Source: a virus. From it: a DNA stretch of 40,447 nucleotides. The stretch's first letter is position 1. Every line of letters begins with the position of its first letter. Below are positions 1-40,447 of the stretch, in pieces. Made by a program: the position numbers and the translations under genes. The stretch spans positions 1-40,447 of IMG/VR virus record IMGVR_UViG_3300010401_000052, one strand, 5' to 3'. Below the pieces are notes generated by a model. That model was not told the DNA's origin. It saw only the letters and a program-made list of their open reading frames with translations, and did no database searches.

Positions 1-144
1 AAAAAGGAAAGAAATGAAGCAAGCAGAAGTAAAAATTAAAGGGTTGAGACCAATTTTATTCCATGCGTTTAAAATTGAGGCTATAACAAATCTAGAGCAA
101 AAGAAATCTGGTAGCGCCGGAAATAACCCAGAAGAATGGAAGTC
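1..144. repeat. Terminal direct repeat, left copy (pairs with 40304-40447)
   Basis: Bases 1-144 match 40304-40447 except at position 96 (A) versus 40399 (G). This is what a circular or circularly permuted genome gives when the contig runs past its own start. The unit length is therefore about 40,303 bp. The mismatch changes codon 28 of the gene at 14-616 from Glu (GAG) to Gly (GGG), so it is either a real variant in the population or a sequencing error. Confidence 0.9.
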
Positions 145-616
145 TACCGTTTTAGAAAAAGGCGGTCAACTGTATGTCCCAGCCTCTTATTGGAGTGGTT
201 GTCTTAAAGAGGCATCGAGATACACAAAAGCAGGCCGAGGATCTATCCAGAAGTCGTTTATCTCCTCATCTTTGGTTCTTACTGAAATTTCATTAATTGA
301 TAGATGGCTTCCTGAAGGTTGGGAGAAAATGGCATTTAATGAAATGCCAAGCGATAGTTCACAAGATGTATATTTAGATATCCGAGCTGTAATGAACCCC
401 AATTCCAAAGGGAAAAATATCCGTTACAGAGTAGCTTGCTGCCCCGGATGGAAAACAGAATTTGCTTTTTCTTTTGATGATTCTATTGTCTCACCATCAC
501 AAATCAAAAAGATTGTAGATGACGCTGGTAAGATGGTTGGCATCGGTGATGCCCGAGTGCTAGGTTATGGGCGGTTCGAAATAGAGTCTATCAAAATCAC
601 AGAGATGAAAGATTAG
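14..616 (+). CDS. RAMP/Cas7-like phage protein of unknown function
   Basis: A 200-residue soluble protein with an AAAGGAAAG ribosome-binding site before the ATG. Features in order: an N-terminal beta strand (KIKGLRPILFHAF, residues 8-20); a segment LYVPASYWSGCLKEA (53-67), like the 'PGSSLKGALR' region of RAMP proteins; and a C-terminal glycine-rich loop GIGDARVLGYGRFEI (176-190), like the RAMP G-loop. I recall a widespread family of prophage proteins with the same architecture and no known role. The RAMP link is inference from these motifs, and no catalytic residues are evident. It lies in the rightward operon that crosses the circle junction, between pentamer arrays 40178-40288 and 622-801. 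The 5' end is repeated at the right end of the contig. Confidence 0.7.
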   Translation: MKQAEVKIKGLRPILFHAFKIEAITNLEQKKSGSAGNNPEEWKSTVLEKGGQLYVPASYWSGCLKEASRYTKAGRGSIQKSFISSSLVLTEISLIDRWLPEGWEKMAFNEMPSDSSQDVYLDIRAVMNPNSKGKNIRYRVACCPGWKTEFAFSFDDSIVSPSQIKKIVDDAGKMVGIGDARVLGYGRFEIESIKITEMKD

Positions 617-621
617 AAAAG

Positions 622-801
622 CGTGGCGCGGCGAGGAGAGGCGTGATTTGGCCAGGTTCGGCATGGCCAGGAGAGAAACGGCATGGCCCGGCACGGCAAG
701 GCCCGGTAAGGCAACGCGCGGCGTGGTGAGGCGAGTCCTGGTACGGCGTGGCGAGGCTAGGAAAGGCAAGGTTTGGCTAGGCAGGACGAGGTAAGGCATG
801 G
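622..801 (+). repeat. YNNGG pentamer array, 36 units
   Basis: 180 bases that split without a gap into 36 five-base units. Most units end in GG, and most start with C or T; the two middle bases vary freely. Exceptions include cgtga, agaga, caacg, cgagt and cagga. The array starts five bases after the stop codon at 616 and ends in catgg followed by TTTTAATGA, just before the AGGAG site of the next gene. The reverse strand reads as a long open frame (a five-residue Pro/Leu/Ala pattern), which I treat as a by-product of the period. Confidence 0.93.
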
Positions 802-825: not shown

Positions 826-1092
826 ATGGAAAAAATAAACAAACATGAGGCTCCATCTGCATGGTTTTTTGCGGAATGGATATCTATCATAGGTACTTTT
901 TTGGTATGTTTTGTGTTTTTGTTCTATCAAAACCAATTGCAAACCGAAAGGACTGATAAAATTTCTGAAAGATTACAACAAGAAATGTCCACGCAATCTG
1001 AAAGATCAGACAAATTATATATAATGTTTGCAGAATCACAAAAAGAATTTCACCAAAAATTCTACGATTTGCTGAAGGAAGGAAGGAAATAA
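826..1092 (+). CDS. Small membrane/coiled-coil protein
   Basis: An 88-residue protein with a strong AAGGAG site. Residues about 14-36 form one hydrophobic membrane segment (WISIIGTFLVCFVFLFY). After that comes a charged, Gln/Glu-rich helix that should form a coiled coil, ending in FYDLLKEGRK. The layout (short N-terminus, one TM segment, coiled coil, basic end) and the 'DKLY.MF...LLK' type ending are shared with the proteins at 21864-22013 and 28204-28404. A holin- or spanin-like role or a membrane-anchored adaptor is possible; nothing in the sequence decides this. Confidence 0.7.
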   Translation: MEKINKHEAPSAWFFAEWISIIGTFLVCFVFLFYQNQLQTERTDKISERLQQEMSTQSERSDKLYIMFAESQKEFHQKFYDLLKEGRK

Positions 1093-2565: not shown

Positions 2566-3842
2566 GGTAAAGTATCACCCATATCTATAAATTTCTTCAC
2601 TTCAGATTCCGGCACTTCCATTGGATCGTTTTCATCACCATTAGCGAACATTAAAACATATCCAGGACGTATTTTATGCTGAGAATTTAATATTTTTCTT
2701 ATATTTTCCTTTAACTCTTCTTTTCTTGAGGCAATATAACCAAAAAGTCGTTCGTTAACTTTTGCTTGAAAATCTTCAGGTTTCTTGCCTCCATTTTCCT
2801 TTTTTAACTGTTCGGCGATTTTATATTCTTCGTTTAAGGTTTCTCCGACAATTCTTAAGTTTTTTACAATAGCCAAGTTTGCTTCTTTGCTAAAGTTAGG
2901 ATTAGGGTAGGCTCCAGATAAGATATTAAATTCCATAGCGGATAACTGAGATCCTGCCACTTCTTTAAAATCAGTGTATTGATTTTTGACTTCTGCTGCT
3001 AGTTCTCTTCTTCCTTCCGATGTTTTTGAAATCAATCCGACAGCTTCTAAGATTTGATCTACAGGTTTTCCAGAAACTCCCTTTTTTATTATTTTTTCTA
3101 TTCTGTCAAGAGATTCATTTTTTAATACTGTTTTCTTGGCGCGATTTTGCAATTCTTTATCATATTCTATGTCTGCTTGAGCTTGGGCCTTTGTTAATAA
3201 TTCTTGGCGTTGAAGTTGTGGGGATTCTTTTCTTTGAATTTCTTCAGATCGGCGTCTACTTTCCAATATATTGCTTGTCCTTCCAGGAAGAATCTCTGGT
3301 TCTTTATTAAAAGCTAATTCTAATTCTTCAGCAGAAGCTTGTGGGTTTTCTCTGATTACTCTTTCGATGGCCGCCGCTTCTTCTCGGCTAGGAGGCGTTC
3401 CTGCTAATCCTCCGAGCGGTGCTTTAGCTTTTTCAGGCCTAGAAATTCTTTCGGCCATTGCGGGATCATTTTCATAAGCAGATAGAGAACCGGGTTCTAA
3501 TCCGCGTCGGATTTCTAAATCCCGCGTTTTCTGTCTATTTTCATCTAGTTTTTGGTCGCCTTTTTGGAGTTCATGAGCGATTTTCTGCTGTTGCAGTCCC
3601 CCTTTTAGAGCATAATCAACATAAAGCTTTTGAAGTTCTGGTGGCAAATCAGCTATGGCTTCGCCTTGTTCTCCGACTAAACTATGTAAAGCCTGCCTTT
3701 TTTGCTTTTCTCGTTGGGCTTCTCTTTGTTGTTGCTGATAATTTTCATACAATTGAGAACCTTGTTCGACACTGGTTCTTAAAGATCTATTCAATCTTTC
3801 CGAGAAAGTCGGTTTACGATTTTCTTCTATAATTTGTACCAT
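2562..3842 (-). CDS. Long helical virion protein, probable ejection protein
   Basis: A 426-residue, highly charged, Gln/Glu/Lys-rich protein that is almost entirely predicted helix. A Gln/Arg-rich coiled coil lies near residues 27-60 (NYQQQQREAQREKQKRQ) and a second helical region near 190-260. No signal peptide or TM segment is seen. It sits between two other likely virion proteins, nine bases downstream of the stop of 3851-4420, and overlaps the next gene by ATGA. Such proteins in this position are commonly internal core components in podoviruses; I infer the same here. Confidence 0.6.
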   Translation of the reverse strand: MVQIIEENRKPTFSERLNRSLRTSVEQGSQLYENYQQQQREAQREKQKRQALHSLVGEQGEAIADLPPELQKLYVDYALKGGLQQQKIAHELQKGDQKLDENRQKTRDLEIRRGLEPGSLSAYENDPAMAERISRPEKAKAPLGGLAGTPPSREEAAAIERVIRENPQASAEELELAFNKEPEILPGRTSNILESRRRSEEIQRKESPQLQRQELLTKAQAQADIEYDKELQNRAKKTVLKNESLDRIEKIIKKGVSGKPVDQILEAVGLISKTSEGRRELAAEVKNQYTDFKEVAGSQLSAMEFNILSGAYPNPNFSKEANLAIVKNLRIVGETLNEEYKIAEQLKKENGGKKPEDFQAKVNERLFGYIASRKEELKENIRKILNSQHKIRPGYVLMFANGDENDPMEVPESEVKKFIDMGDTLP

Positions 3843-3850
3843 ATAACCCC

Positions 3851-4420
3851 TTAAAATAAACCTGAGCCCGCATTATAACCTAATGAAGCACCTGTAGCGG
3901 CTCCAGCTGGGCCTCCTAAAAAGAATCCTCCAGTGGCCCCAGCTGCTCCTCCAGCTAGTCCTCCCCAATCAAAACCTTGTTTCTGTTGTTTTTTCACTAA
4001 GAAATTTTCGTAGGGTCTTTGACCCATCAATTCATTACTCATGCTCATTAAATCTCTTAATGCTTGATTTCTTAATTCCATCCTTTGTCCTTGTAATTGC
4101 TGGGCGAAGTCACTAGTAGCTTGGTTCGCGTAGTTTTGGAATCCACTACTATGTCTTGCTCCTAATGCTCCTGGTCCACCACCTCCCTGGCTGAATCGAG
4201 AAGCCATTTGCCCTTGTAAACCTTGGAATTGGCGTAACGCAGGAGCTTCCATTTCTGCGAACATTGACTCATCACCACCAGCAAGCCTTGATAAGAAACT
4301 ATTAGGACCTACGTGGCGCATAGAGTTTTTTAATAATTTCATCTGATCAGGTGTAAATTGTTGTACTGTACCTTTTCGGTATCCAGAAGGGATGTTTTCT
4401 TTCATTCCATAAGAAGGCAT
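3851..4420 (-). CDS. Virion-associated protein with Gly/Ala-rich C-terminus
   Basis: A 189-residue protein. The centre is Gln/Met/Arg-rich helix (about residues 80-145). The last 40 residues are a Gly/Ala-rich, weakly hydrophobic stretch (GGLAGGAAGATGGFFLGG and following) that resembles the membrane-active tail of small ejection proteins. It forms a trio with the two genes downstream. The assignment to virion or ejection proteins rests on this composition and on the gene order. Confidence 0.55.
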   Translation of the reverse strand: MPSYGMKENIPSGYRKGTVQQFTPDQMKLLKNSMRHVGPNSFLSRLAGGDESMFAEMEAPALRQFQGLQGQMASRFSQGGGGPGALGARHSSGFQNYANQATSDFAQQLQGQRMELRNQALRDLMSMSNELMGQRPYENFLVKKQQKQGFDWGGLAGGAAGATGGFFLGGPAGAATGASLGYNAGSGLF

Positions 4421-4925: not shown

Positions 4926-7912
4926 GCCAATACCTGGGAAGGTGATACATCCAAAATAAAGCTATGCAATTCAATTTCAGCAAATTGATTAGGGGCTACA
5001 ATTGTTGCAATACCCCCAGAAACATAAATTCCAAATGGGGCGGAATTGACTTCAATTGTTACGGTCGTAGCATCAGATTCCAGCACATTAAATATATTAT
5101 TGTTTAGTTCTGTCATGCCCACAACGCCCGTGATACGAATTGTAGAACCTGGAGTAAAGGCAGCTGTCGTTGTTAAAACACAGGGGCTTGCCCTTGTAGC
5201 TCCAGTAATAGCATATGAGTTCGTAGATACCTCTAAAGTCCTCATTTGGTCTTCGGACAAGGTAAATCCTAATTGGACTGTATCTCCAATGAGAGATGTG
5301 TTTATGCGATGCCAAATCTGCTGCTGAGCATCTGCCGTAGGCATCTGTAAATTAACATTTGCCGCCGTTAAACCTAAATTTGTGCTTTCTGGGCATGTGT
5401 AGAGTACAGTGCTATATAGAAGCGCATTATTTAAACTCAAAGGATCCGGTACAAAAGGCGGTTCATTATATGGACTACTATCGTTTTGGCTTAAGAATAT
5501 GAGCAGGGTAATTTGGGCATTCGAAGTCTTGCTCAAAAGATATTGCTGAACGCCTATTCTAGTTTTTCTCGCCATTCCCCAGGCTACTGGGAACTGCTTT
5601 GTTTGGATAAACGGCACATACATTCTTTTGATTAAGCCGCCTCCAAGATATGTTCCAGATGTAATAGTAGGATTTAAAATAAAGGTATTGTTATCTACTG
5701 AAGTTACTTGGAATATTTTCCCGTTTACTTGTGCGCCGACGGTTCCTAAAGCTCCTGTGATGATTATGAAGTCATCTTCATTTAAACCATGGTCTGGAGA
5801 CGTAACAGTGCTAGAAGATATGTTTTGGATGTATAAAGAGTTCCCTTCATTCGTTCCTTCGTCTTTGACCATTACGAAGCCTTGCTGATTACCTGCGATG
5901 ATTTCTGGTTGCAACAAAGTCGACTCACCTGCATTCCAAGGGTCATTCCAAGAATTCCATGTAGGATAAATCAGACCTACAGTACTCCAAATAAATCCTG
6001 TTTTTCTTCGAAACTGGCCATAATGAGTATAAGATTCATTGAAAATGGCCCAAGACTGGTCTCTATAGTTGTAGAAGAGCGTTTGGTTAGGAAATTTCAC
6101 TTTATCTTCATCAGCAGTATATGTGAGATAAATCCATTCATTTATGAAGTCTCTTTGGGCTGTGACGCGTTCTGGACCGTTATTTGTAAGCTGGAACTGG
6201 AAAACTTGATCAGGTATCTCTAAATCAATTCTTTGGCATTCTGTTTGCCCTGTAATGATGATACCGCGGCTTCCTCTAGTGATTACGCCTTTATCCATAT
6301 TGATTGCAGAGAAAACGCTGCTGGAACCCAGTTCAGAATTGATTATGTAGAAGTTGAATGGGATAATATCATTACCCGTATACACAAATCTGGCCTGCAA
6401 ACGATCAAACCCTAAAATAATCACATCCCCGTTCATGGAAGCACTGTTTATGGGCTGATCAATGCCGGCTGTAATAAAGCCGCCAAATCCTGTTTGGTCT
6501 TCCCAGTATGCGCTAGGGGTGGCTGTTTGATTGTCTGGAACAAGAATAGGATGGAAAGTCGTTGTCGCTAAAGATGGATCGCCAGTAAAAGACGCAGTGT
6601 AATATGGAGTTCCATTTTGGCTATATATAACAGTGTCCTGGAGATACCTCTGACTGCCCACTGCTGAAGTCTGGACGACTGGGCCAATAAAAATCAGGCG
6701 ATCTTTAAAAGACATTATCATCCTGGCGCCGACTAAGTAATATAGGGCCTTAGGTAGATCTGCGATAGAGAAATTAGATATTGATAAAGGAGGAGCAAAA
6801 TTTACCCATCCCTTAGCTCCATTTAATGTAGGATTTGTAGAATTACCATTAGTGGGATCTCCATCATACCATCTCAAAGAATCTACAGTGGTATCTGATC
6901 GGTTTGTAAGATATTGTGCTATCCCCCCAGTTCCATTACCGACCAAAGTCGCATTAGGAAACTCTACCGATACATTATTAGCGTCAATAACAGCGATCAC
7001 ATATCCTGTTTGAAAGTTTATCCCAGTAGTGGTTACCACTTCATTAATGAATAAAAAGTCTCCCACAACTAAGCCATGGCCTGTTATTTGCAATGTAGCT
7101 ATAGCAGGTGGTCCTCCCGCAGTAATAGTAACAGTAACAATTGGTTTAAATTGCATCCCGATATTTGTTGTGGTAAAAGGCACTGTGATGCCATTTGTAG
7201 CCCACAATGCGCCTTGATAATTCACAGTCCAGAATTGCTGATAATCCTGCCCATTCCATGTTGTAGGTGTGATATCAGTTTTTGGTATGTAGCCAGGCAA
7301 TAAAGCGCTAACGCCTGGGTTCTTATAAAAACTAACATCATAAATAGGGTATGGATTGGCGGTAGTGATATTATAAGAATAGACTGTATCGAACGCTAGT
7401 GTCCCTGGGAAATCGTTTATACCAATTGTTAGCTCTTCAAGACCCATTACGGGCAAATCAGGTGTATATAAAAATTGAGCCGTTATCGCATGGCCTGCAC
7501 CGCCAGTGATCGTTATAGCGCCGGTAGCGTAATTAATGGTTCCCGTTCCCGCGGGAGCTCCTGTTAGAGTGCCATTTTTTAGAGGATCTGTGTAAGTGCG
7601 GCCAGTTACGGTATCCAATATAGAAACGCTTCCAGGAACGATATTCCCATTGGTTTCTAAGCCAAATCCTGTAAGAATGTTGGCTGCTCCTCCGACCAGA
7701 TTAATAGTAGAAGTGGAAGAATAAGAAACCGAAGTGGATTTGAAAAATCTTTGTAACCGACCAAGAAGAGAAGTGCCGCGTTTACGCTTTATTCTTCCTC
7801 TCCATTGATATGCATTGACTAAAGTAGGAAATGAATCATTATCAATAACAAATGGAGTAACATCATTCCGCAAGCCTCTTGTGATGGGCCCTACAACGAT
7901 TTTGTCGCCCAT
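4922..7912 (-). CDS. Large tail / stabilisation protein with FCCH-like modules
   Basis: A 996-residue beta-rich protein, the largest in the genome. The N-terminus (GPITRGLRNDVTPFVIDNDS, residues 8-27) is typical of podovirus tail proteins that join the portal complex to the tail. Three copies of a small module of type 'HGL..GD.....G....N...F.V...D...' occur, at roughly residues 275-325, 695-745 and 920-975; database annotation often labels this fold as the ubiquitin-activating E1 FCCH domain. The same module appears in 10295-10948 and 10997-12118. The body is rich in Asn/Thr and aromatic residues, as in structural tail proteins. The next gene upstream ends one base before its start. Confidence 0.7.
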   Translation of the reverse strand: MGDKIVVGPITRGLRNDVTPFVIDNDSFPTLVNAYQWRGRIKRKRGTSLLGRLQRFFKSTSVSYSSTSTINLVGGAANILTGFGLETNGNIVPGSVSILDTVTGRTYTDPLKNGTLTGAPAGTGTINYATGAITITGGAGHAITAQFLYTPDLPVMGLEELTIGINDFPGTLAFDTVYSYNITTANPYPIYDVSFYKNPGVSALLPGYIPKTDITPTTWNGQDYQQFWTVNYQGALWATNGITVPFTTTNIGMQFKPIVTVTITAGGPPAIATLQITGHGLVVGDFLFINEVVTTTGINFQTGYVIAVIDANNVSVEFPNATLVGNGTGGIAQYLTNRSDTTVDSLRWYDGDPTNGNSTNPTLNGAKGWVNFAPPLSISNFSIADLPKALYYLVGARMIMSFKDRLIFIGPVVQTSAVGSQRYLQDTVIYSQNGTPYYTASFTGDPSLATTTFHPILVPDNQTATPSAYWEDQTGFGGFITAGIDQPINSASMNGDVIILGFDRLQARFVYTGNDIIPFNFYIINSELGSSSVFSAINMDKGVITRGSRGIIITGQTECQRIDLEIPDQVFQFQLTNNGPERVTAQRDFINEWIYLTYTADEDKVKFPNQTLFYNYRDQSWAIFNESYTHYGQFRRKTGFIWSTVGLIYPTWNSWNDPWNAGESTLLQPEIIAGNQQGFVMVKDEGTNEGNSLYIQNISSSTVTSPDHGLNEDDFIIITGALGTVGAQVNGKIFQVTSVDNNTFILNPTITSGTYLGGGLIKRMYVPFIQTKQFPVAWGMARKTRIGVQQYLLSKTSNAQITLLIFLSQNDSSPYNEPPFVPDPLSLNNALLYSTVLYTCPESTNLGLTAANVNLQMPTADAQQQIWHRINTSLIGDTVQLGFTLSEDQMRTLEVSTNSYAITGATRASPCVLTTTAAFTPGSTIRITGVVGMTELNNNIFNVLESDATTVTIEVNSAPFGIYVSGGIATIVAPNQFAEIELHSFILDVSPSQVLA

Positions 7913-23925: not shown

Positions 23926-24839
23926 GAGTTCTCCTTAATTGTTATTTTAAGTTTTCTACACATGTTCTCGAATTGTTCTAAAAAGCCATTTTCCTTGAAA
24001 GCTATTTGCATATGAGATTGGCCTAACACCGAAGTAAAAGAAATGCCTAAAGAGTTGATATTACATTCGTAATTGCTATAGATTTCGCCGCTTTTAAAGA
24101 TTTTTCTTACATACTGCTCTGGGTTAAAAGTGTTTGTTTTTTTACCATTTGCATTGTAGGCGATGCAAAGTTTGTCGTAGTTTTTCCTCAAGTTTGCAGG
24201 GGAAAGTACCACAGTCGACCAAAATTCGTCATGTGGAAGCCAATCAATAATTTTCTTTATCTCTTCAGGGGTTCTGTTGTCGATACGGATCATGCGATCG
24301 ATCTGTAGCTCCCATTCCTTGAGGTTGGGTTCTTTGAAGCTAGGAAGCATACAGCGAATGTTTTTCAATAAACTTTGAGAGAGCTCTTTAGGAAGAGATG
24401 AAAAAGGAAAAGGAATAGCGACGTCAGGAGCGCTCTCTTCTTCTTTTCTTTCATCTTTACTCTCTATATAATGAGAGGGTTGGATTTTTTTCACAGTCTG
24501 GGTTGGATTTTTTTCCAACCCTGCCTTGGATTGGCTTTCATGAACATATTTATGAACCAGAGATTTCACTACCCTTTTTCTGCCATCAAATGAAATATCT
24601 TCTATAAGATTCTTTTTTCTGAGATTGACCATGCATTTGGCTATAGTATTTTCTTTAACTTTGAGACGTTGTGCTAAATATTGATTTGAGGCGAAACAAC
24701 CACCTTTTTCTTTGTCATAAAGTGCATCGATCCAAGATAAAAGAATTTGCTCGAGTGGGGTAAGATCTTCTATTTCCAACACTTCAACAGGGATAAAGAT
24801 GCCCGTAAAGCGAGGTTTGGGTTGAGGTTCTTCAGACAT
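23922..24839 (-). CDS. Winged-helix replication initiation-like protein
   Basis: 305 residues. The N-terminal 100 have the pattern of a phage replication winged helix: LEIEDLTPLEQILLSWIDAL (20-39), then FASNQYLAQRLKVKENTIAK (48-67) and RKKNLIEDISFDGRKR. A Ser/Lys-rich linker follows, then an aromatic C-terminal domain. It resembles RepA/DnaD-like or lambda O-type initiators. No helicase motif is seen, so host helicase loading is likely. It probably marks the origin; no iterons were found by eye. Confidence 0.65.
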   Translation of the reverse strand: MSEEPQPKPRFTGIFIPVEVLEIEDLTPLEQILLSWIDALYDKEKGGCFASNQYLAQRLKVKENTIAKCMVNLRKKNLIEDISFDGRKRVVKSLVHKYVHESQSKAGLEKNPTQTVKKIQPSHYIESKDERKEEESAPDVAIPFPFSSLPKELSQSLLKNIRCMLPSFKEPNLKEWELQIDRMIRIDNRTPEEIKKIIDWLPHDEFWSTVVLSPANLRKNYDKLCIAYNANGKKTNTFNPEQYVRKIFKSGEIYSNYECNINSLGISFTSVLGQSHMQIAFKENGFLEQFENMCRKLKITIKENS

Positions 24840-31352: not shown

Positions 31353-32972
31353 CTAACAAGCTAAGTAACCTGTAAAAAAAGTATTAGGATCCGTTGCACC
31401 ACCATATACATCATCCGTGTCCGCGGTTTCACCAATTCCTATAACCGTTGTTGTACATGTATCAGCCGCATCCATATCAACTAATGCATTACATTCGCAT
31501 GCATTGTTCACATTTGATGCGCCTCTTTGTGTGGAATTTGTCCAAATTCGATTAGAAGTAGCTAAATTAACAACTGTCTTTGTATTTATTGTACAGCCTG
31601 TTAAAACACATGTTGCACTTAAGTTATATCTTCCTGTAACTGGTGCTGTAAAAACTCCTGTGCCGTTATTGTAGTCTGCATTCTGATCAAAAATTTCTGT
31701 ATCACACACAAAAGTATAAATTGTAGAATTACCGGTAACATTATTTGTTGGTGAACTTTTAAAGGCAGCAAATGCTGTTTGAAGAGGGTAATTTATTTCT
31801 CCTGAAGTAGCCACGCTCATCACATTTGTAGTACCTAAAGCAGTAGAAGCGGCGATCACAAATGCATCTGATGCACTATTATCTAAACCGAAAGTAAATG
31901 TTGTTACCCCAGAAATCGTTGCTTGAAAAGTTGGATCTGCAGCTGTTCCTCCACCGACAGTAGAAAGGATATTTGCTGAAGAGGTAGCAGTGTTAGAGCT
32001 ATTTGTCACAGTTAATGTGTTTGTATTTCCAGAATTTGACGAGCCAAAAGTTGCGCTAGGTCCTCTATTGAACAATGTTTGTGTTGTTGTATTTATATTT
32101 GAAGATGTACCTGTAAAGATAAGTCCGCCATAATTTATTGTACCAGCACCTGTTATGGCATTTGTATTACTAGAAGAAATCACAGATCCACTTAAACTCA
32201 TCGTTTGAGATATTGAAATTGCGGATGCAGATCCAGAAAGAAACTGTGAACCTGTTACTGCTCCGTTTCCAGAACCTCCACAAGTGACTGCTGTAACGTT
32301 TTGAGCTGATGAATCTACAGAAGCGTAAGTAAAAGCTATAGCCCCTGTAGAGGAAGAAGTAACTGGATTTTTTAGTGAAGACCAACTAAGATTAAATGTG
32401 CCTGCAGAAATGGTGTTGGCCGTAGAAGAAGCGCCAGTGTTTGTAAAAAGAGAATAGGACAAACTTAATGCTCCCGCACTACTAGAAGCAAATAAGCCTA
32501 TACCTGTAGTGCCTAAGTCTCCAGTACAACGGTTTAGGGCAATTGCTGCACTACCACTTGAAGTTGTGAAAGATATTCCTGTATTGTTAGTGCAATTCAA
32601 ATTGCAATTAACAAGATTAACAATTGAAGCCGCTGAACCAGTTACTGCGAGTAGAAAATCGGAATTTGTTTGCAGTTGAATGCCCGAAATAGTAACAGTA
32701 CCCGCTGCTGTAAATGTCGCCTTACCTGAAATGATCACTTTACCAGTTTGGTTTAATGAGCTGTCGGATCCATAGGCTGTTAAATTAACGCCAGCCTTTA
32801 AAGTTAAGTTTTCTGTATAGGTGCCTGGCCTAATAAAAATTGTGTCACCAGAAGAAGCGGAAGTAAGCGCTGCGGCGATTGTTGTATGGGTTCCGTTGGC
32901 GGCGCTAGCATCTACAATAAACTTAGCTGGCCCGTAGTTGTTGGTCGATAGAGCATGAGTAAACGCGCTCAT
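31353..32972 (-). CDS. Tail fibre with beta-helix and C1q/TNF-like tip
   Basis: 539 residues. The N-terminus has the usual repeat of a parallel beta-helix (SGDTIFIRPGTYTENLTLKA, about 40-59), as in pectate-lyase-type fibres. A long Ser/Thr/Gly/Ala region follows. The C-terminal 139 residues (401-539), with FAAFKSSPTNNVTGNSTIY and then GVFTAPVTGRYNLSA, resemble C1q/TNF-like trimeric heads. Such tips recognise host receptors. Its start overlaps the HNH gene by ATGA. Confidence 0.75.
   Translation of the reverse strand: MSAFTHALSTNNYGPAKFIVDASAANGTHTTIAAALTSASSGDTIFIRPGTYTENLTLKAGVNLTAYGSDSSLNQTGKVIISGKATFTAAGTVTISGIQLQTNSDFLLAVTGSAASIVNLVNCNLNCTNNTGISFTTSSGSAAIALNRCTGDLGTTGIGLFASSSAGALSLSYSLFTNTGASSTANTISAGTFNLSWSSLKNPVTSSSTGAIAFTYASVDSSAQNVTAVTCGGSGNGAVTGSQFLSGSASAISISQTMSLSGSVISSSNTNAITGAGTINYGGLIFTGTSSNINTTTQTLFNRGPSATFGSSNSGNTNTLTVTNSSNTATSSANILSTVGGGTAADPTFQATISGVTTFTFGLDNSASDAFVIAASTALGTTNVMSVATSGEINYPLQTAFAAFKSSPTNNVTGNSTIYTFVCDTEIFDQNADYNNGTGVFTAPVTGRYNLSATCVLTGCTINTKTVVNLATSNRIWTNSTQRGASNVNNACECNALVDMDAADTCTTTVIGIGETADTDDVYGGATDPNTFFTGYLAC
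32953..32965. repeat. 13-bp direct repeat, inner copy (fibre gene 5' end)
   Basis: GCATGAGTAAACG here is identical to 33615-33627. This copy lies in the present 5' coding end of the fibre gene (codons for FTHA). The two copies flank the HNH gene. Confidence 0.8.
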
Positions 32973-33568
32973 AAAACCTCTTTTTTATTTTTTTGAGCCA
33001 TTCTTCTTTTTTCTGTCCAAGGTTTCCCTTTCATTTTTTCTCTCATTTTCTCTTTACTTTCTTCTGTATGTGGTTTTCTTTTTTTCCCCGCTCTGTATCC
33101 TTTAATACCTTTATTCCAGGCGGCAACTCCAGTTCGTTGCTTACTCCATAATTCCAATGTCTCTTTAGAGTATATTCCTTTTTTTCCTTTATTCCATACT
33201 ACTGGATTATTTGGTAATTTAGGCTCGACAATAGCATGACATATATCACAAAGAGTTATCACGTTACTTGGTTCATATCTCAATTCTTCACTTTCTTTCC
33301 AAGGCACAATATGATGAGCATGTAATGTTTGTGTATTTCCACATCTCGTACATTTATATCCATCACGCTCTAATATTTGAGTCCTAAATTGAAAATAAAA
33401 TCTTCCGCCTTTCCCTCTACTTCTGAATAATCCTTTATTTCCGACTGGTTTGCCCGTCCTTCGAGATTTATTTTTGCATTCCTTACATTTATTTCCATAT
33501 TTGCAATGAGACTTGATAAATCTCTCTAATTCTTTTTCTTCACCGCATTTTCTACATACTTTTAACAT
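32969..33568 (-). CDS. HNH homing endonuclease
   Basis: 199 residues from the ATG at 33568, which has AGGAG. The N-terminus has two CxxC pairs (CRKC, CKEC). The HNH domain follows: CTRCGNTQTLHAHHIVPWKE with the His pair, then SNVITLCDICHAIVEPK. The C-terminal half has NUMOD3-like motifs (NKGKKGIYSKETLELW and KPHTEESKEKMREKMKG). It sits exactly at the start of the tail fibre gene. A 5' fragment of that gene survives on its other side (33615-33627), so this is an inserted selfish element. Confidence 0.85.
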   Translation of the reverse strand: MLKVCRKCGEEKELERFIKSHCKYGNKCKECKNKSRRTGKPVGNKGLFRSRGKGGRFYFQFRTQILERDGYKCTRCGNTQTLHAHHIVPWKESEELRYEPSNVITLCDICHAIVEPKLPNNPVVWNKGKKGIYSKETLELWSKQRTGVAAWNKGIKGYRAGKKRKPHTEESKEKMREKMKGKPWTEKRRMAQKNKKEVL

Positions 33569-33614
33569 GTGTTTTCTCCTATTTAGCGGAGTGTACCACA
33601 TTCGTTAATTCTAT

Positions 33615-36576: not shown

Positions 36577-38964
36577 TTATAAAGGTCTTACTATAAAATA
36601 TGCAAATGAGGAAACATCTGCCGTTTGCGTTGATGCAGGAGTGCCCAAAATCAAACTAGTGACAGTGAAGCTTGTAGCATTTATGATAGTATATGTGTAC
36701 TCGCCTAATGTTACAGAGCCGTTGCTAGCTATCCTAGATAGGAATATCAAGTCACCAGTAGCGATATTTGTGTTGGCAATTGTGACTGTACCTAAAGTGA
36801 GTACTCCAGTACCTGCGAAGTCAGTAGCAGCTCCAGTTTTAATTTGTAGGCCTTTTCCAGTTGTCGCGATTCTTAAGTTGGCTCCTGTAACCTTAACATC
36901 ACCAGACCCTGCGTTCAGGACTGTAGTTGATGTTGTTGTTGTTGAGCCCAAGGTAACAGTTTTTGCTGCACCACCTGTACCGATAAGCAATGTAGTCGCT
37001 GCGGCATCGCCTGAAATGGTAATTGCTCCTGTACCAGTAGCCAATGTGAAGATACCATTTGTGGTCGTGTATGTTGTTCCTGCAGTACCTGTATTCACGT
37101 TAACTGCAGTAGCGCCCGTGATATTACCGATAGTAACGATATGCGCTATTGCGTTAGTCCCGACGTTTACTCCACCTGTACCGGCATTAAGTGATACCGC
37201 AGTAACACCAGTAGAGTTACCGATATTGATCGTATGGTCTGCTGCGTCAGCGCCGATTGAGATGGTTCCTGTTCCTGTAGTTAAAGCGAATGCTCCGTTA
37301 GTTGTGTTAAATGAGCTAGCGCCAGTTCCTGCGTTAATCACAACAGTAGAAGCGCCAGTAACATTACCTATGGTTACTGCGTGAGCAATAGCATTTGTTC
37401 CGACGTTTACACCACCTGTACCACCATTAATAGATACAGCAGTTACTCCTGTCGAGTTACCGATCGTGATAGTATGGTCAGCAGCATCAGCACCGATTGA
37501 GATAGTTCCTGTTCCTGTTAATAGACTGAAAATGCCATTAGTAGTCGTTAGGGTTGTGCCACCTGTTCCTGTGTTGATATTGACAGCAGTAGCACCTGTG
37601 ATGTTACCGATGGTTACAGTATGCTCGATAGCATTAGTACCAACGTTAACGCCAGAAGTACCACCATTTAAGGAAACGGGAGTCGCGCCTGTAGAGTTAC
37701 CAATATTGATGATATGATCAGCAGCATCAGCGCCAATGGATATAGTTCCAGTCCCGGTAAGTAGGCTAAAGATACCGTTAGTGGTTGTGACTGTAGAGCC
37801 ACCGGTACCAGTATTGATATTAACGGCTGTAGCTCCGGTGATATTACCTATGGTGACTGTATGGGCAATTGCGTTCGTACCGACCGTGACACCGGCAGTA
37901 CCTGCGTTAAGAACTACTTGAGTAGCGCCTGTGCTATTGCCTAAAGTGATAATATGAGCAGCTGCATCAGTACCAATGTTGATACCACCAGTTCCTGTAG
38001 CGATAGTGAATGTGCCGTTTGTAGTTGTAAAGGCAGAGCCACCAGTACCAGTATTGATATTGACTGCAGTACCGCCTGTAATGTTACCTATCGTAATTGT
38101 TTTAGCAACTGCGTCTGTTCCGACCGAAATGGCTCCTGTGCCGGTCAACACACTAAAGATACCGTTGGTTGTTGTTATTGTAGATCCGGCGGTTCCTGTG
38201 TTAACGTTTACTGCAGTAGCGCCTGTGATATTTCCAATTGTTACTATATGGGCTATAGCATTAGTGCCTATGTTTAATGCACCAGTGCCGGCGTTTAGTA
38301 CTATGCTTGTAGCGCCCGTGGAGTTACCTAGGGTGATTGTACGAGCAGCCGCTCCTGTTCCTATATTGATTGCATCTGCTGAAGCATCCGAACCGATATT
38401 GATTGCTGTACCACCAGAAAGGATTGTTGCACTTCCACTTAATGAGGCTAAACCGCTCGCTCCGATTGTTGTGAATAAAGCAGCCGCTGGAGTTGTTCCT
38501 CCGATAGCTGGATTAGCAGCGAACACAGCCGCAAGACTCTTTGGTTGTACTGCAAGAGGTGTTCCTGGGTTTAAGTTGGTTCCTGCTACTGCCTGGGCAT
38601 CTGTAGCTTCTTGAATAAGCCCTACAGCAGCTTCTGTGGCTAAATTACCACCTGCTATTACAACGCTATTAACAAATGTAAAGACATCGTTGGCTAATGG
38701 CACTACAGAACCTGCTGGAGCTGTCCCTGCTTCTAATTGTGCTAATGTAGAGAGAAGTACACTACCAGCTAATGTAGTAGATGCAGGCGAAGCTCCTCCT
38801 GTTACCCATGTCAGGCCATTGTATACATATTCTGCTGGTGGCGTTACGCTTTTATCGAAATATTGCTGACCTAATTGGGCTCTAAAACTTAATGGAGGAG
38901 GTCCAAAACCTGTCACTGCACCATCTTGAACCGCTATTAGACCACCTATACCATATGCTGTCAT
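36577..38964 (-). CDS. Repeat-rich tail fibre
   Basis: A 795-residue protein with GAGG before the ATG. The N-terminal 100 residues look like a phage attachment domain (GPPPLSFRAQLGQQYFDKSV). The centre, about residues 195-650, consists of imperfect repeats of type 'GTGAI.IGTDA..HTITIGN.TGAT.V..NTGTGG...TTTNG.F', with an 80-residue higher-order unit. The C-terminal 100 residues are a small beta domain. The repeats would form a long beta-structured shaft. Its promoter is 39015-39043. Confidence 0.8.
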   Translation of the reverse strand: MTAYGIGGLIAVQDGAVTGFGPPPLSFRAQLGQQYFDKSVTPPAEYVYNGLTWVTGGASPASTTLAGSVLLSTLAQLEAGTAPAGSVVPLANDVFTFVNSVVIAGGNLATEAAVGLIQEATDAQAVAGTNLNPGTPLAVQPKSLAAVFAANPAIGGTTPAAALFTTIGASGLASLSGSATILSGGTAINIGSDASADAINIGTGAAARTITLGNSTGATSIVLNAGTGALNIGTNAIAHIVTIGNITGATAVNVNTGTAGSTITTTNGIFSVLTGTGAISVGTDAVAKTITIGNITGGTAVNINTGTGGSAFTTTNGTFTIATGTGGINIGTDAAAHIITLGNSTGATQVVLNAGTAGVTVGTNAIAHTVTIGNITGATAVNINTGTGGSTVTTTNGIFSLLTGTGTISIGADAADHIINIGNSTGATPVSLNGGTSGVNVGTNAIEHTVTIGNITGATAVNINTGTGGTTLTTTNGIFSLLTGTGTISIGADAADHTITIGNSTGVTAVSINGGTGGVNVGTNAIAHAVTIGNVTGASTVVINAGTGASSFNTTNGAFALTTGTGTISIGADAADHTINIGNSTGVTAVSLNAGTGGVNVGTNAIAHIVTIGNITGATAVNVNTGTAGTTYTTTNGIFTLATGTGAITISGDAAATTLLIGTGGAAKTVTLGSTTTTSTTVLNAGSGDVKVTGANLRIATTGKGLQIKTGAATDFAGTGVLTLGTVTIANTNIATGDLIFLSRIASNGSVTLGEYTYTIINATSFTVTSLILGTPASTQTADVSSFAYFIVRPL
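37000..38400 (-). repeat. Tandem repeats in the fibre gene, 240-bp period
   Basis: Blocks at 37201, 37441 and 37681 begin with the same 60-base pattern (codons for TGV/A, then HTI.IGNSTG); the spacing is exactly 240 bases (80 codons). Further copies are more diverged. The repeats allow length change of the fibre shaft by recombination. Confidence 0.8.
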
Positions 38965-39068: not shown

Positions 39069-39097
39069 TTGACAAAATTTGTGACTTTTGTTACCAT
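39069..39097 (+). promoter_or_regulatory. Rightward promoter of the array operon
   Basis: TTGACA (39069-39074) is 17 bases from TACCAT (39092-39097). A start site six to eight bases on falls at or next to the A of the ATG at 39104, so the first mRNA may be leaderless. Confidence 0.65.
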
Positions 39098-39103
39098 AGG
39101 TAT

Positions 39104-39337
39104 ATGAAAGAAGAAAAAGCGTACCTTACAATCTTAGAATTCGCGCATGAAATATCGGCGCATCCTAATACTGTTAGGAAAATGATCAAGAGCGGGAGAA
39201 TATCGGCCTTCAAACTAGACGGAGGCAGGAAATCGGCCTATAGAATAGCCAGATCAGAAATAACCAGAATGGCGGTTGTTGATTTAGAAAAGATCGTTAA
39301 TGATATGGTAGAGAAGCGGTTGAAAGAGAAAAAATGA
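39104..39337 (+). CDS. Excisionase-type HTH DNA-binding protein
   Basis: 77 residues from the ATG at 39104; the frame is open upstream, across the promoter. The fold YLTILEFAHEISAHPNTVRK (7-26) then MIKSGRISAFKLDGGRKSAY (27-46) with RIARSEI matches small MerR/Xis-type winged helix proteins. The C-terminus is a basic helix. It is the first gene of the operon with pentamer arrays, and perhaps the regulator of both divergent promoters. No integrase is present for it to serve as a true excisionase. Confidence 0.8.
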   Translation: MKEEKAYLTILEFAHEISAHPNTVRKMIKSGRISAFKLDGGRKSAYRIARSEITRMAVVDLEKIVNDMVEKRLKEKK

Positions 39338-39477
39338 TATGGCAACGCCAGGTTTGGCGGGGTGAGGCATGACGTGGTGAGGCGTCACATGGCAGGGCCA
39401 GGTTTGGCAAGGCAAGGCATGGTTCGGCTAGGCGTGGCAAGGCGAGGGTAGGCAAGGTAAGGTAAGGCGAGGCTTGG
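39338..39477 (+). repeat. YNNGG pentamer array, 28 units
   Basis: 140 bases with 28 five-base units in register; it starts one base after the stop codon. Exceptions are caacg, catga and cgtca. It ends cttgg followed by TTTTAATAATAGGAG, directly before the next gene. Confidence 0.93.
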
Positions 39478-39498: not shown

Positions 39499-39759
39499 AT
39501 GAGTGAAGCCTGGGTGCAAGTACTAGCTCTTTTCGTAGGGAATGCAGCGTTAATTTTATGGTTTAGATCTGAATCTCGAGCTGATTGGCGTCATATGGAT
39601 AATAAGTTAGATATTTTCGTTAAAGGAATCCAGGAAGAAATAAAAGATTTCCATGGCAGATTGGAAAGGCAGGATGCAGAGTTTAAGGGAAGACTAGAGA
39701 AGCAAGACGCGGAATTTAAGGCCCATCTTCTATATCATCATCAGAAAGAAAATAAGTAA
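39499..39759 (+). CDS. Small TM/coiled-coil protein with tandem 11-residue repeat
   Basis: 86 residues with AGGAG. It has a membrane helix (VQVLALFVGNAALILWF, 6-22), then a coiled coil with EEIKDFHGRLERQDAEFKGR and an exact repeat of type RLE(R/K)QDAEFK (two copies, 33 bases each). It ends in a His/Lys-rich tail. It shares KDFHGRL with 39985-40170. Confidence 0.65.
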   Translation: MSEAWVQVLALFVGNAALILWFRSESRADWRHMDNKLDIFVKGIQEEIKDFHGRLERQDAEFKGRLEKQDAEFKAHLLYHHQKENK

Positions 39760-39764
39760 TTAGT

Positions 39765-39964
39765 TTTGGTTCGGCCTGGTCTGGTTCGGCTGGGCATGGT
39801 ATGGCGAGGCATGGCGGGATAAGGCTTGGCATGGTGAGATGTGGTCTGGTTCGGCAAGGTCTGGTTCGGCTAGGTGTGTCTGGGTTAGGCCAGGTGAGGT
39901 AAGGTCTGGCGAGGCATGGAACGGCGAGGTCTGGCTGGATGGGGCGAGATGAGGCGAGGCTTGG
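39765..39964 (+). repeat. YNNGG pentamer array, 40 units
   Basis: 200 bases giving exactly 40 five-base units. Exceptions include cggga, tgaga, tgtgt, ctgga and cgaga. It starts six bases after the stop codon and ends cttgg before TTTATTAAAAGGAA and the next ATG. Confidence 0.93.
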
Positions 39965-39984: not shown

Positions 39985-40170
39985 ATGACAGAAGCAACAA
40001 TACAAGTATTGACGATTGTAGGATCAAATTTAGTGATTATGTTCACATTTTTTGGTGTAACTGTATCTTTGCATAATGGAATACGCGAAGAAATAAGGGC
40101 TATTAAAGACGAGATGAAAGACTTCCACGGTAGGCTATGCGCTATTGAAGAAAGAAACAAGAATAAATAA
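39985..40170 (+). CDS. Small TM/coiled-coil protein of the repeated family
   Basis: 61 residues with AAAGGAA. The hydrophobic N-terminal segment (VLTIVGSNLVIMFTFFGVTV, about 8-27) spans the membrane. A coiled coil follows (REEIRAIKDEMKDFHGRL), then a basic tail. Its plan and the KDFHGRL motif match 39499-39759. Confidence 0.65.
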   Translation: MTEATIQVLTIVGSNLVIMFTFFGVTVSLHNGIREEIRAIKDEMKDFHGRLCAIEERNKNK

Positions 40171-40177
40171 GTTATTG

Positions 40178-40288
40178 CCGGGTGGGGCCCGGCACGGCGG
40201 GGCCCGGTGAGGCTCGGACAGGTAAGGCTGGCCATGGTGAGGCTGGGCCATGGCGTGGCTAGGTATGGTACGGTGAGGTGCGGTATGG
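40178..40288 (+). repeat. YNNGG pentamer array, 22 units with one slip
   Basis: 111 bases: 22 units plus one extra C at 40248, which shifts the register once. It ends tatgg followed by TTTTATTACAC before the RAMP-like gene. It is the most G/C-rich of the four arrays at its start. Confidence 0.9.
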
Positions 40289-40303: not shown

Positions 40304-40447
40304 AAAAAGGAAAGAAATGAAGCAAGCAGAAGTAAAAATTAAAGGGTTGAGACCAATTTTATTCCATGCGTTTAAAATTGAGGCTATAACAAATCTAGGG
40401 CAAAAGAAATCTGGTAGCGCCGGAAATAACCCAGAAGAATGGAAGTC
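40304..40447. repeat. Terminal direct repeat, right copy
   Basis: Identical to 1-144 except position 40399. It shows that the operon crossing the right end continues at the left end. Confidence 0.9.
40317..40447 (+). CDS. RAMP/Cas7-like protein, 5' partial (second view of 14-616)
   Basis: The ATG at 40317 corresponds to 14. Only the first 43 codons are present because the contig ends. It is not a second gene. Codon 28 reads Gly here and Glu in the left copy. Confidence 0.9.
   Translation, partial: MKQAEVKIKGLRPILFHAFKIEAITNLGQKKSGSAGNNPEEWK

What the first reader, a model, noticed from the sequence alone, without database searches (positions are those of the whole stretch)
14..616. Phage protein with RAMP/Cas7-like features inside the array operon
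The N-terminal strand, the YWSGCLKEA region and the GIGDARVLGYGRFEI loop are laid out as in RAMP proteins of type I/III CRISPR complexes, which bind RNA in a fixed period of six. No cas genes or CRISPR array occur here. A RAMP-like RNA binder next to strictly periodic RNA suggests the arrays might be its ligand, coated along the mRNA or a processed RNA. This is a hypothesis joining two independent oddities.
Basis: partly seen in the sequence, partly recalled or inferred. Interest (0 to 1): 0.8.

Follow-up and report, generated by a model that had tools for sequence, protein, structure and literature searches.

The report
Phage RNA-guided VIPR system, new member

Summary
The observation and the core of the interpretation hold. 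The 200-aa protein at 14-616 has a RAMP fold: AF2 pLDDT 92, and all 50 listed Foldseek PDB rows are CRISPR RAMP entries. By sequence it is a homologue of the solved SUSP1 Vipr protein (PDB 36pp; E 5e-6 alone, 4e-41 by profile). It sits on one strand with four YNNGG period-5 arrays. Family and arrays co-occur: 82 of 120 array loci found by DNA pattern alone encode a homologue, against 0 of 119 period-6 control loci. This is VIPR (PMC13142463, 2026): Vipr binds vrRNA arrays whose NN pairs read DNA with a one-base skip. The window is a new member of a known kind.

New details: it is a nuclease-free phage relative of a cellular clade with an adjacent HNH gene; its arrays are mostly long (up to 40 units) and interleaved with a phage-family membrane-protein gene. 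No target was established and no 3' tail was seen.

In passing: in 18 viral contigs, including the nearest relative's, arrays lie beside covarying tRNA-like minihelices, a probable RNase P/Z processing layout not mentioned in the paper's main text; its supplement was not readable.

The parts
14..616 (+). vipr gene, 200 aa, RAMP fold, homologue of SUSP1 Vipr
625..801 (+). vrRNA array A4, 36 units by the automatic finder, 31 with perfect GG
826..1092 (+). small ORF, 88 aa, hydrophobic N-terminal stretch; downstream in the same orientation, probably not a VIPR part
   Evidence: phrog_3934, E 1.3e-4, unknown function
39069..39097 (+). sigma-70-like promoter match (TTGACA-17-TACCAT, 10 of 12, TG before the second hexamer), a candidate operon promoter
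   Evidence: the number of such sites in the region (5) is not above shuffles (3.1, sd 2.0)
39104..39337 (+). helix-turn-helix, excisionase-like gene at the head of the operon; possible DNA-binding accessory
   Evidence: phrog_66, E 4.6e-5
39351..39477 (+). vrRNA array A1, 26 units, 24 with perfect GG
39499..39759 (+). small membrane-type ORF, 86 aa, with a DFHGRL motif
   Evidence: no PHROG match
39768..39964 (+). vrRNA array A2, 40 units, 35 with perfect GG
39985..40170 (+). small membrane-type ORF, 61 aa, with a DFHGRL motif; a common gene of related phages, most of which lack VIPR
40181..40288 (+). vrRNA array A3, 14+8 units around a phase slip
40317..40447 (+). second copy of the start of vipr in the terminal repeat of the record

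Best explanation
The gene at 14-616 is a Vipr, a minimal phage RAMP protein, and the four neighbouring YNNGG arrays are its guide RNAs (vrRNAs). Shown here: the RAMP fold, sequence homology to the solved SUSP1 Vipr, the shared strand and neighbourhood, and the family-wide link to arrays. Inferred from the published system: Vipr subunits line up along the array RNA, about one per five bases, holding the GGY positions; the NN pairs base-pair with double-stranded DNA, skipping one base per pair, usually the wobble base of a codon; the complex then sits on a gene of a competing phage, satellite or prophage and blocks its transcription. No adjacent nuclease gene is present, so blocking rather than cutting is the likely outcome here. 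The guide length (one long guide per array, or several), the RNA ends and the targets of this particular phage remain unknown.
For: RAMP fold: AF2 pLDDT 92.1, Foldseek E 1.2e-8, Z 12.8. Only PDB sequence match is 36pp 'SUSP1 Vipr protein': E 3.7e-41 by profile A1, 5.4e-6 for the window protein alone. Array loci found by DNA pattern alone encode a homologue in 82 of 120 cases against 0 of 119 period-six controls. Within loci related by another phage gene, 0 of 73 without Vipr have GG arrays, 2 of 3 with Vipr do. Units: 115 of 122 with Y third, GG nearly fixed, NN 15 of 16 types. Over 278 array runs the one-base-skip model wins 146 against 66 and 66 for the alternatives. The published experiments are in PMC13142463 (main text).
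Against: No target was found in the window or in 76 related loci; of three exact ten-unit patterns one gave a single weak hit and two gave none. The window's own array runs do not favour the one-base skip singly: five of six score below the best alternative. Three of four arrays are longer (26, 36 and 40 units) than the published 9-16. No conserved structured 3' tail was seen; the arrays run into the next gene's ribosome-binding site. 14 of 122 units have an imperfect GG. A GC-matched redealing of units keeps most of the one-base-skip advantage.
Confidence: 0.93

Rival explanations
1. Vipr binds the arrays as part of its own mRNA, an autoregulatory coat on an operon transcript, and no free guide RNA is made.
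For: The arrays lie between genes of one strand and end directly before ribosome-binding sites, with no recognisable tail or processing element; the tRNA-like model finds nothing in the window.
Against: NN is hypervariable while GGY is kept, and NN fits codon positions 1-2 over the population, which a mere coat would not need. The published homologue makes discrete ~100-nt vrRNAs (PMC13142463).
Confidence: 0.04
2. It is a VIPR that cuts DNA, using the distant HNH protein at 32969-33601 as its nuclease.
For: All ten cellular relatives have an HNH gene directly after vipr, and the window's HNH protein matches that HNH family weakly (E 2.7e-5).
Against: The window's HNH gene is about 7 kb away on the other strand and matches phage HNH families better (phrog_1271, E 6e-18); the nearest relatives L001 and L017 and the related phage locus L279 show no match to the HNH in the DNA held.
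Confidence: 0.03
3. The RAMP resemblance and the arrays are unrelated coincidences.
For: Short GC-rich tandem repeats are common in general, and the arrays sit near the record's ends.
Against: Fold and sequence matches to CRISPR RAMPs and to solved Vipr and co-occurrence of 82 of 120 against 0 of 119.
Confidence: 0.01

Closest known systems
VIPR system of Escherichia phage SUSP1 (Vipr, PDB 36pp; PMC13142463)
   Same: Homologous ~200-aa RAMP protein, YNNGG arrays on both sides of the gene (for SUSP1), phage-borne, no cas genes seen.
   Different: Only ~23% identical by tblastn; three of four arrays longer (26-40 units against 9-16 published); arrays interleaved with membrane-type genes; no structured tail seen; no homologue of the SUSP1 neighbour gene was looked for.
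Cellular HNH-bearing relatives (L266-L275, L002, L004); probably one of the paper's nuclease-bearing types III-V, type not assigned
   Same: Closest cellular relatives of the window's Vipr, 36-47% identical; GGYNN array nearby in 7 of 10 genomes.
   Different: They have an HNH gene directly downstream (10 of 10) and usually a single array; the window has several arrays and no adjacent HNH.
Csm3/Cas7 RAMP subunits of type III and type VII CRISPR
   Same: Fold and, for Vipr by publication, guide-RNA binding.
   Different: RNA period of five instead of six, no CRISPR repeats or spacers seen, single small protein, discontinuous DNA readout (published).

Membership tests
VIPR | Vipr protein: RAMP fold, homologous to known Vipr | tested here: met
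   Fold; homology to PDB 36pp
VIPR | vrRNA arrays of GGY/NN repeats beside the gene | tested here: met
VIPR | 9-16 repeats per vrRNA | tested here: inconclusive
   Arrays of 26, 40, 14+8 and 36 units; RNA ends unknown. 40 of 385 arrays elsewhere also have at least 21 units
VIPR | Conserved, structured 3' tail | tested here: inconclusive
   Arrays end GGTTT(T)A..T before the next gene; no common structure was established. Two of four array regions were folded: A2 z -3.3, A4 z -0.2
VIPR | Recognition of DNA with a one-base skip | tested here: inconclusive
   Supported over 278 runs, not by the window's own six runs; no target found (weak hit)
VIPR | Accessory vap gene | tested here: inconclusive
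   An excisionase-like helix-turn-helix gene heads the operon; it was not compared with vap1-6 because the supplement was not readable
VIPR | Vipr binds vrRNA | not testable with these tools
   Needs a pull-down
CRISPR-Cas class 1 | RAMP fold | tested here: met
CRISPR-Cas class 1 | Repeat-spacer CRISPR array near the RAMP gene | tested here: not met
   The tandem-repeat scan shows only pieces of the period-5 arrays and two unrelated repeats at 24480 and 37100; other cas genes were not searched for systematically

The most novel reading that the evidence does not exclude
VIPR has a tRNA-punctuated branch: in 18 viral contigs, including that of the window's nearest relative L001, vrRNA arrays lie beside small tRNA mimics (about 12 paired bases, as in acceptor plus T stem, a linker of usually 10-12 nt with a GG, and a T-loop) that host RNase P and tRNase Z would cut to release each guide. 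The window itself represents the nuclease-free phage side from which, or beside which, a cellular HNH-armed VIPR branch arose, and it may use unusually long guides.
Probability: 0.6. Interest if true: 0.6.

Novelty: new member of a known kind. Interest (0 to 1): 0.45.

Why it matters
It confirms, from an unrelated phage and by independent computation, that a RAMP protein and YNNGG arrays form one system, and it places a nuclease-free phage VIPR next to a cellular branch that carries a nuclease. That placement bears on the published idea that such systems moved from phages into cellular defence. The tRNA-like spacers in relatives, if cut as predicted, would give VIPR a processing route through host enzymes and a natural example of a multi-guide transcript.

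Tried and rejected
Membrane-type genes as VIPR accessories: rejected. The DFHGRL gene family occurs in 76 viral loci, of which 73 have neither a vipr nor GG arrays; it is a gene of that phage group. The phages and plasmids collections gave no match to it.

Target searches: the own genome at skips 0-3 (the skip-3 hits are the arrays themselves), and 76 related loci plus the window at skips 0-2: no better than shuffled. Exact ten-unit patterns in IMG/VR: A4 one hit, A1 none, A2 none; A3 was not searched there. The A4 hit (L248, 22 of 22 bases over 11 units, in codon frame) is not claimed: I estimate, without a calculation by any tool, about 0.1 such hits by chance for the 20 bases searched. A guessed 35-aa peptide gave nothing in phages.

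Host: the portal protein has no match in the phages collection; the host is unknown. Pfam gave only a sub-threshold hit of no meaning; PADLOC has no model that matches Vipr.

Hammerhead ribozymes next to arrays: a crude regular expression found 1 against 4.6 expected; Rfam at gathering thresholds found nothing in six sources. Neither a curated hammerhead nor a curated tRNA family was seen there. ARAGORN found no tRNA in the window and one odd call in L007.

Promoter- and terminator-like sites near the operon are not more than in shuffles.

Full report
WHAT IS THERE. The ORF at 14-616 (+) is real and contains the quoted motifs. The record, an IMG/VR-type virus record of 40,447 bases, repeats 144 bases at its ends with one mismatch, so the operon runs across the record ends: helix-turn-helix gene (39104-39337), array A1, membrane-type gene, array A2, membrane-type gene, array A3, vipr, array A4, membrane-type gene. 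All lie on the + strand. Runs of eight GGNNN units occur 24 times against none in 100 shuffles. Of 122 units delimited by hand, 108 have a perfect GG, 115 have a pyrimidine third, and NN covers 15 of 16 dinucleotides. Array lengths by an automatic finder are 26, 40, 14+8 and 36 units.

WHAT THE PROTEIN IS. An AlphaFold2 model from a 52-row alignment (A1) has mean pLDDT 92.1 and pTM 0.87. All 50 listed Foldseek rows are CRISPR RAMP-bearing entries, best E 1.2e-8. VIA-align gives Z 12.8 (rmsd 4.8, 162 residues) to a type VII Cas7 chain and Z 12.4 (rmsd 2.9, 141 residues) to Csm3 5yjd_B. By sequence the only PDB match is 36pp, 'SUSP1 Vipr protein': E 3.7e-41 with A1, whose rows are the window and IMG/VR loci only, 5.4e-6 with the window protein alone, and 5e-8 with the five-row clade alignment A2. 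PHROG 4652 (unknown function) matches at 1.4e-12.

THE PUBLISHED SYSTEM. PMC13142463 (bioRxiv 2026; I read the whole main text, and nothing of the supplement) describes VIPR: a phage RAMP protein, Vipr, and vrRNAs of 9-16 YNNGG repeats plus a 3' tail. The NN pairs recognise double-stranded DNA with a one-base skip; targets are competing phages, satellites and prophages; binding represses transcription. It was found by the search; a search for the system's names found only this paper. I saw its SUSP1 layout, one array upstream and three downstream of the gene, in KT454805 (the fourth array is short at my threshold).

CO-OCCURRENCE, TESTED. A profile seeded on six proteins outside that set and then extended from its own hits finds a homologue in 82 of 120 at E<=1e-2, 81 at 1e-5. 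Of the 38 misses several are plain G-rich or low-complexity tracts and most others look like true arrays. The same pattern at period six gave 119 new loci, none with a homologue. In 76 loci that share a DFHGRL membrane-protein gene with the window, 3 carry a Vipr; two of those (L279, L280, which look like the same locus) have five GG arrays each, and the third (L309) has period-five repeats of another motif, read by eye as GC-NN-W. None of the 73 without Vipr has GG arrays.

THE CODE. Over 278 array runs in 108 loci I asked whether the NN pairs fit one constant codon phase (one-base skip) or a rotating one (other skips), each with six free choices. Constant phase won 146, the others 66 and 66. 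The commonest best phase, 113 of 278, is codon positions 1-2 on the sense strand. Redealing units among arrays of similar GC keeps most of the advantage, so composition explains much of it. The lead of constant phase is 111 against 81 redealt (sd 12, largest of 100 redeals 114) over one alternative and 123 against 83 (sd 12, largest 111) over the other. The window's six runs do not favour it singly (five of six negative). This supports the published rule for the population, not for the window by itself.

PLACE IN THE FAMILY. A genome scan found ten cellular relatives of the window clade, in Bacillota and Chloroflexota. All ten have an HNH gene directly downstream, and seven have a detected array. 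In a tree of 23 proteins the 11 HNH-bearing rows (nine of these genomes plus L002 and L004) form one side of a fully supported branch (100/100). Window, L001 and L017, with no such gene next to vipr, fall outside; the window is placed nearest to the HNH rows (80/65, weak). The window thus looks like a phage-borne, nuclease-free neighbour of a nuclease-armed cellular branch. This fits the paper's view that nucleases were added after transfer to cells; the direction is not shown here.

A SIDE FINDING: tRNA-LIKE SPACERS. In L001 (the window's nearest relative, 52% identical), in Gordonia phage Trine (L007) and in L042, arrays alternate with small T-arm hairpins: 9 next to arrays, in four loci, against 0.95 expected from the background rate; the one in L014 differs in loop and stem and may be chance. 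A pattern search for GTTCGACTCC before an array found 18 contigs, of which one is L001's contig, one is L042 and one has Trine's length. Elements there pair 11-12 of 12 bases around a linker of 10-12 nt: 35 distinct ones, by a search that itself required pairing. In 13 of these (A3) 96.8% of cells are paired against 61.6% shuffled, 10 of 12 pairs change on both sides, and the covariation score is 0.872 against 0.194 shuffled and 0.25 at most when slid. Because selection required pairing, the fraction paired is inflated; the model search is the cleaner test. The covariance model hits L042 three times and L001 once among 100 sources, 95 of them array loci, and nothing in 100 of the 119 control loci (931 kb). 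The window has none. L251 and L257 seem to carry full-length tRNA-like elements beside arrays. The paper's main text contains the word tRNA zero times and names hammerhead-interspersed and staggered arrays instead. A literature search with tRNA-like, vrRNA, RNase P, guide RNA array and phage (at least four of five terms) found nothing. My reading, that host RNase P and tRNase Z release the guides, is inferred from the structure and from recalled knowledge of minimal RNase P substrates.

ARRAY LENGTH. Of 385 arrays in 106 loci by the automatic finder, 275 have 9-16 units, 40 have at least 21 and 18 at least 30. The window's long arrays are a minority form; whether they hold one long guide or several is open.

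VERDICT. The result is a new, diverged member of VIPR, not a new kind of system.

Noticed in passing
L001:5820-5856, L007:5576-5847, L042:6883-7218, L250-L265: tRNA-like minihelices (acceptor plus T-arm, T-loop TTCGACT) stand between or beside vrRNA arrays, with compensatory changes in the stems; a likely RNase P/Z processing layout not named in the VIPR paper's main text.
   Followed up: partly
L266-L275: Bacillota and Chloroflexota genomes carry Vipr plus an adjacent HNH gene (10 of 10) and usually a single array (7 of 10 detected).
   Followed up: partly
L309:3480-3640 and 5260-5345: A distant Vipr (gene at about 3743-4384) lies between period-five repeats of another consensus, GC-NN-W by eye, in a phage related to the window by its DFHGRL genes.
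   Followed up: no
window 39499-39759 and 39985-40170; L276-L351: Small membrane-type proteins with a DFHGRL motif are common in viral contigs, many 35-41 kb long (76 loci), mostly without VIPR; function unknown.
   Followed up: partly
window 37100-37884: A 240-base tandem repeat, 3.3 copies at 72% match, inside a long ORF on the - strand (36577-38964), perhaps a repetitive structural protein.
   Followed up: no
L248 (reverse strand, 11 units): Exact match to 11 NN units of array A4 at a one-base skip, in codon frame, in a phage protein gene; may be chance.
   Followed up: partly
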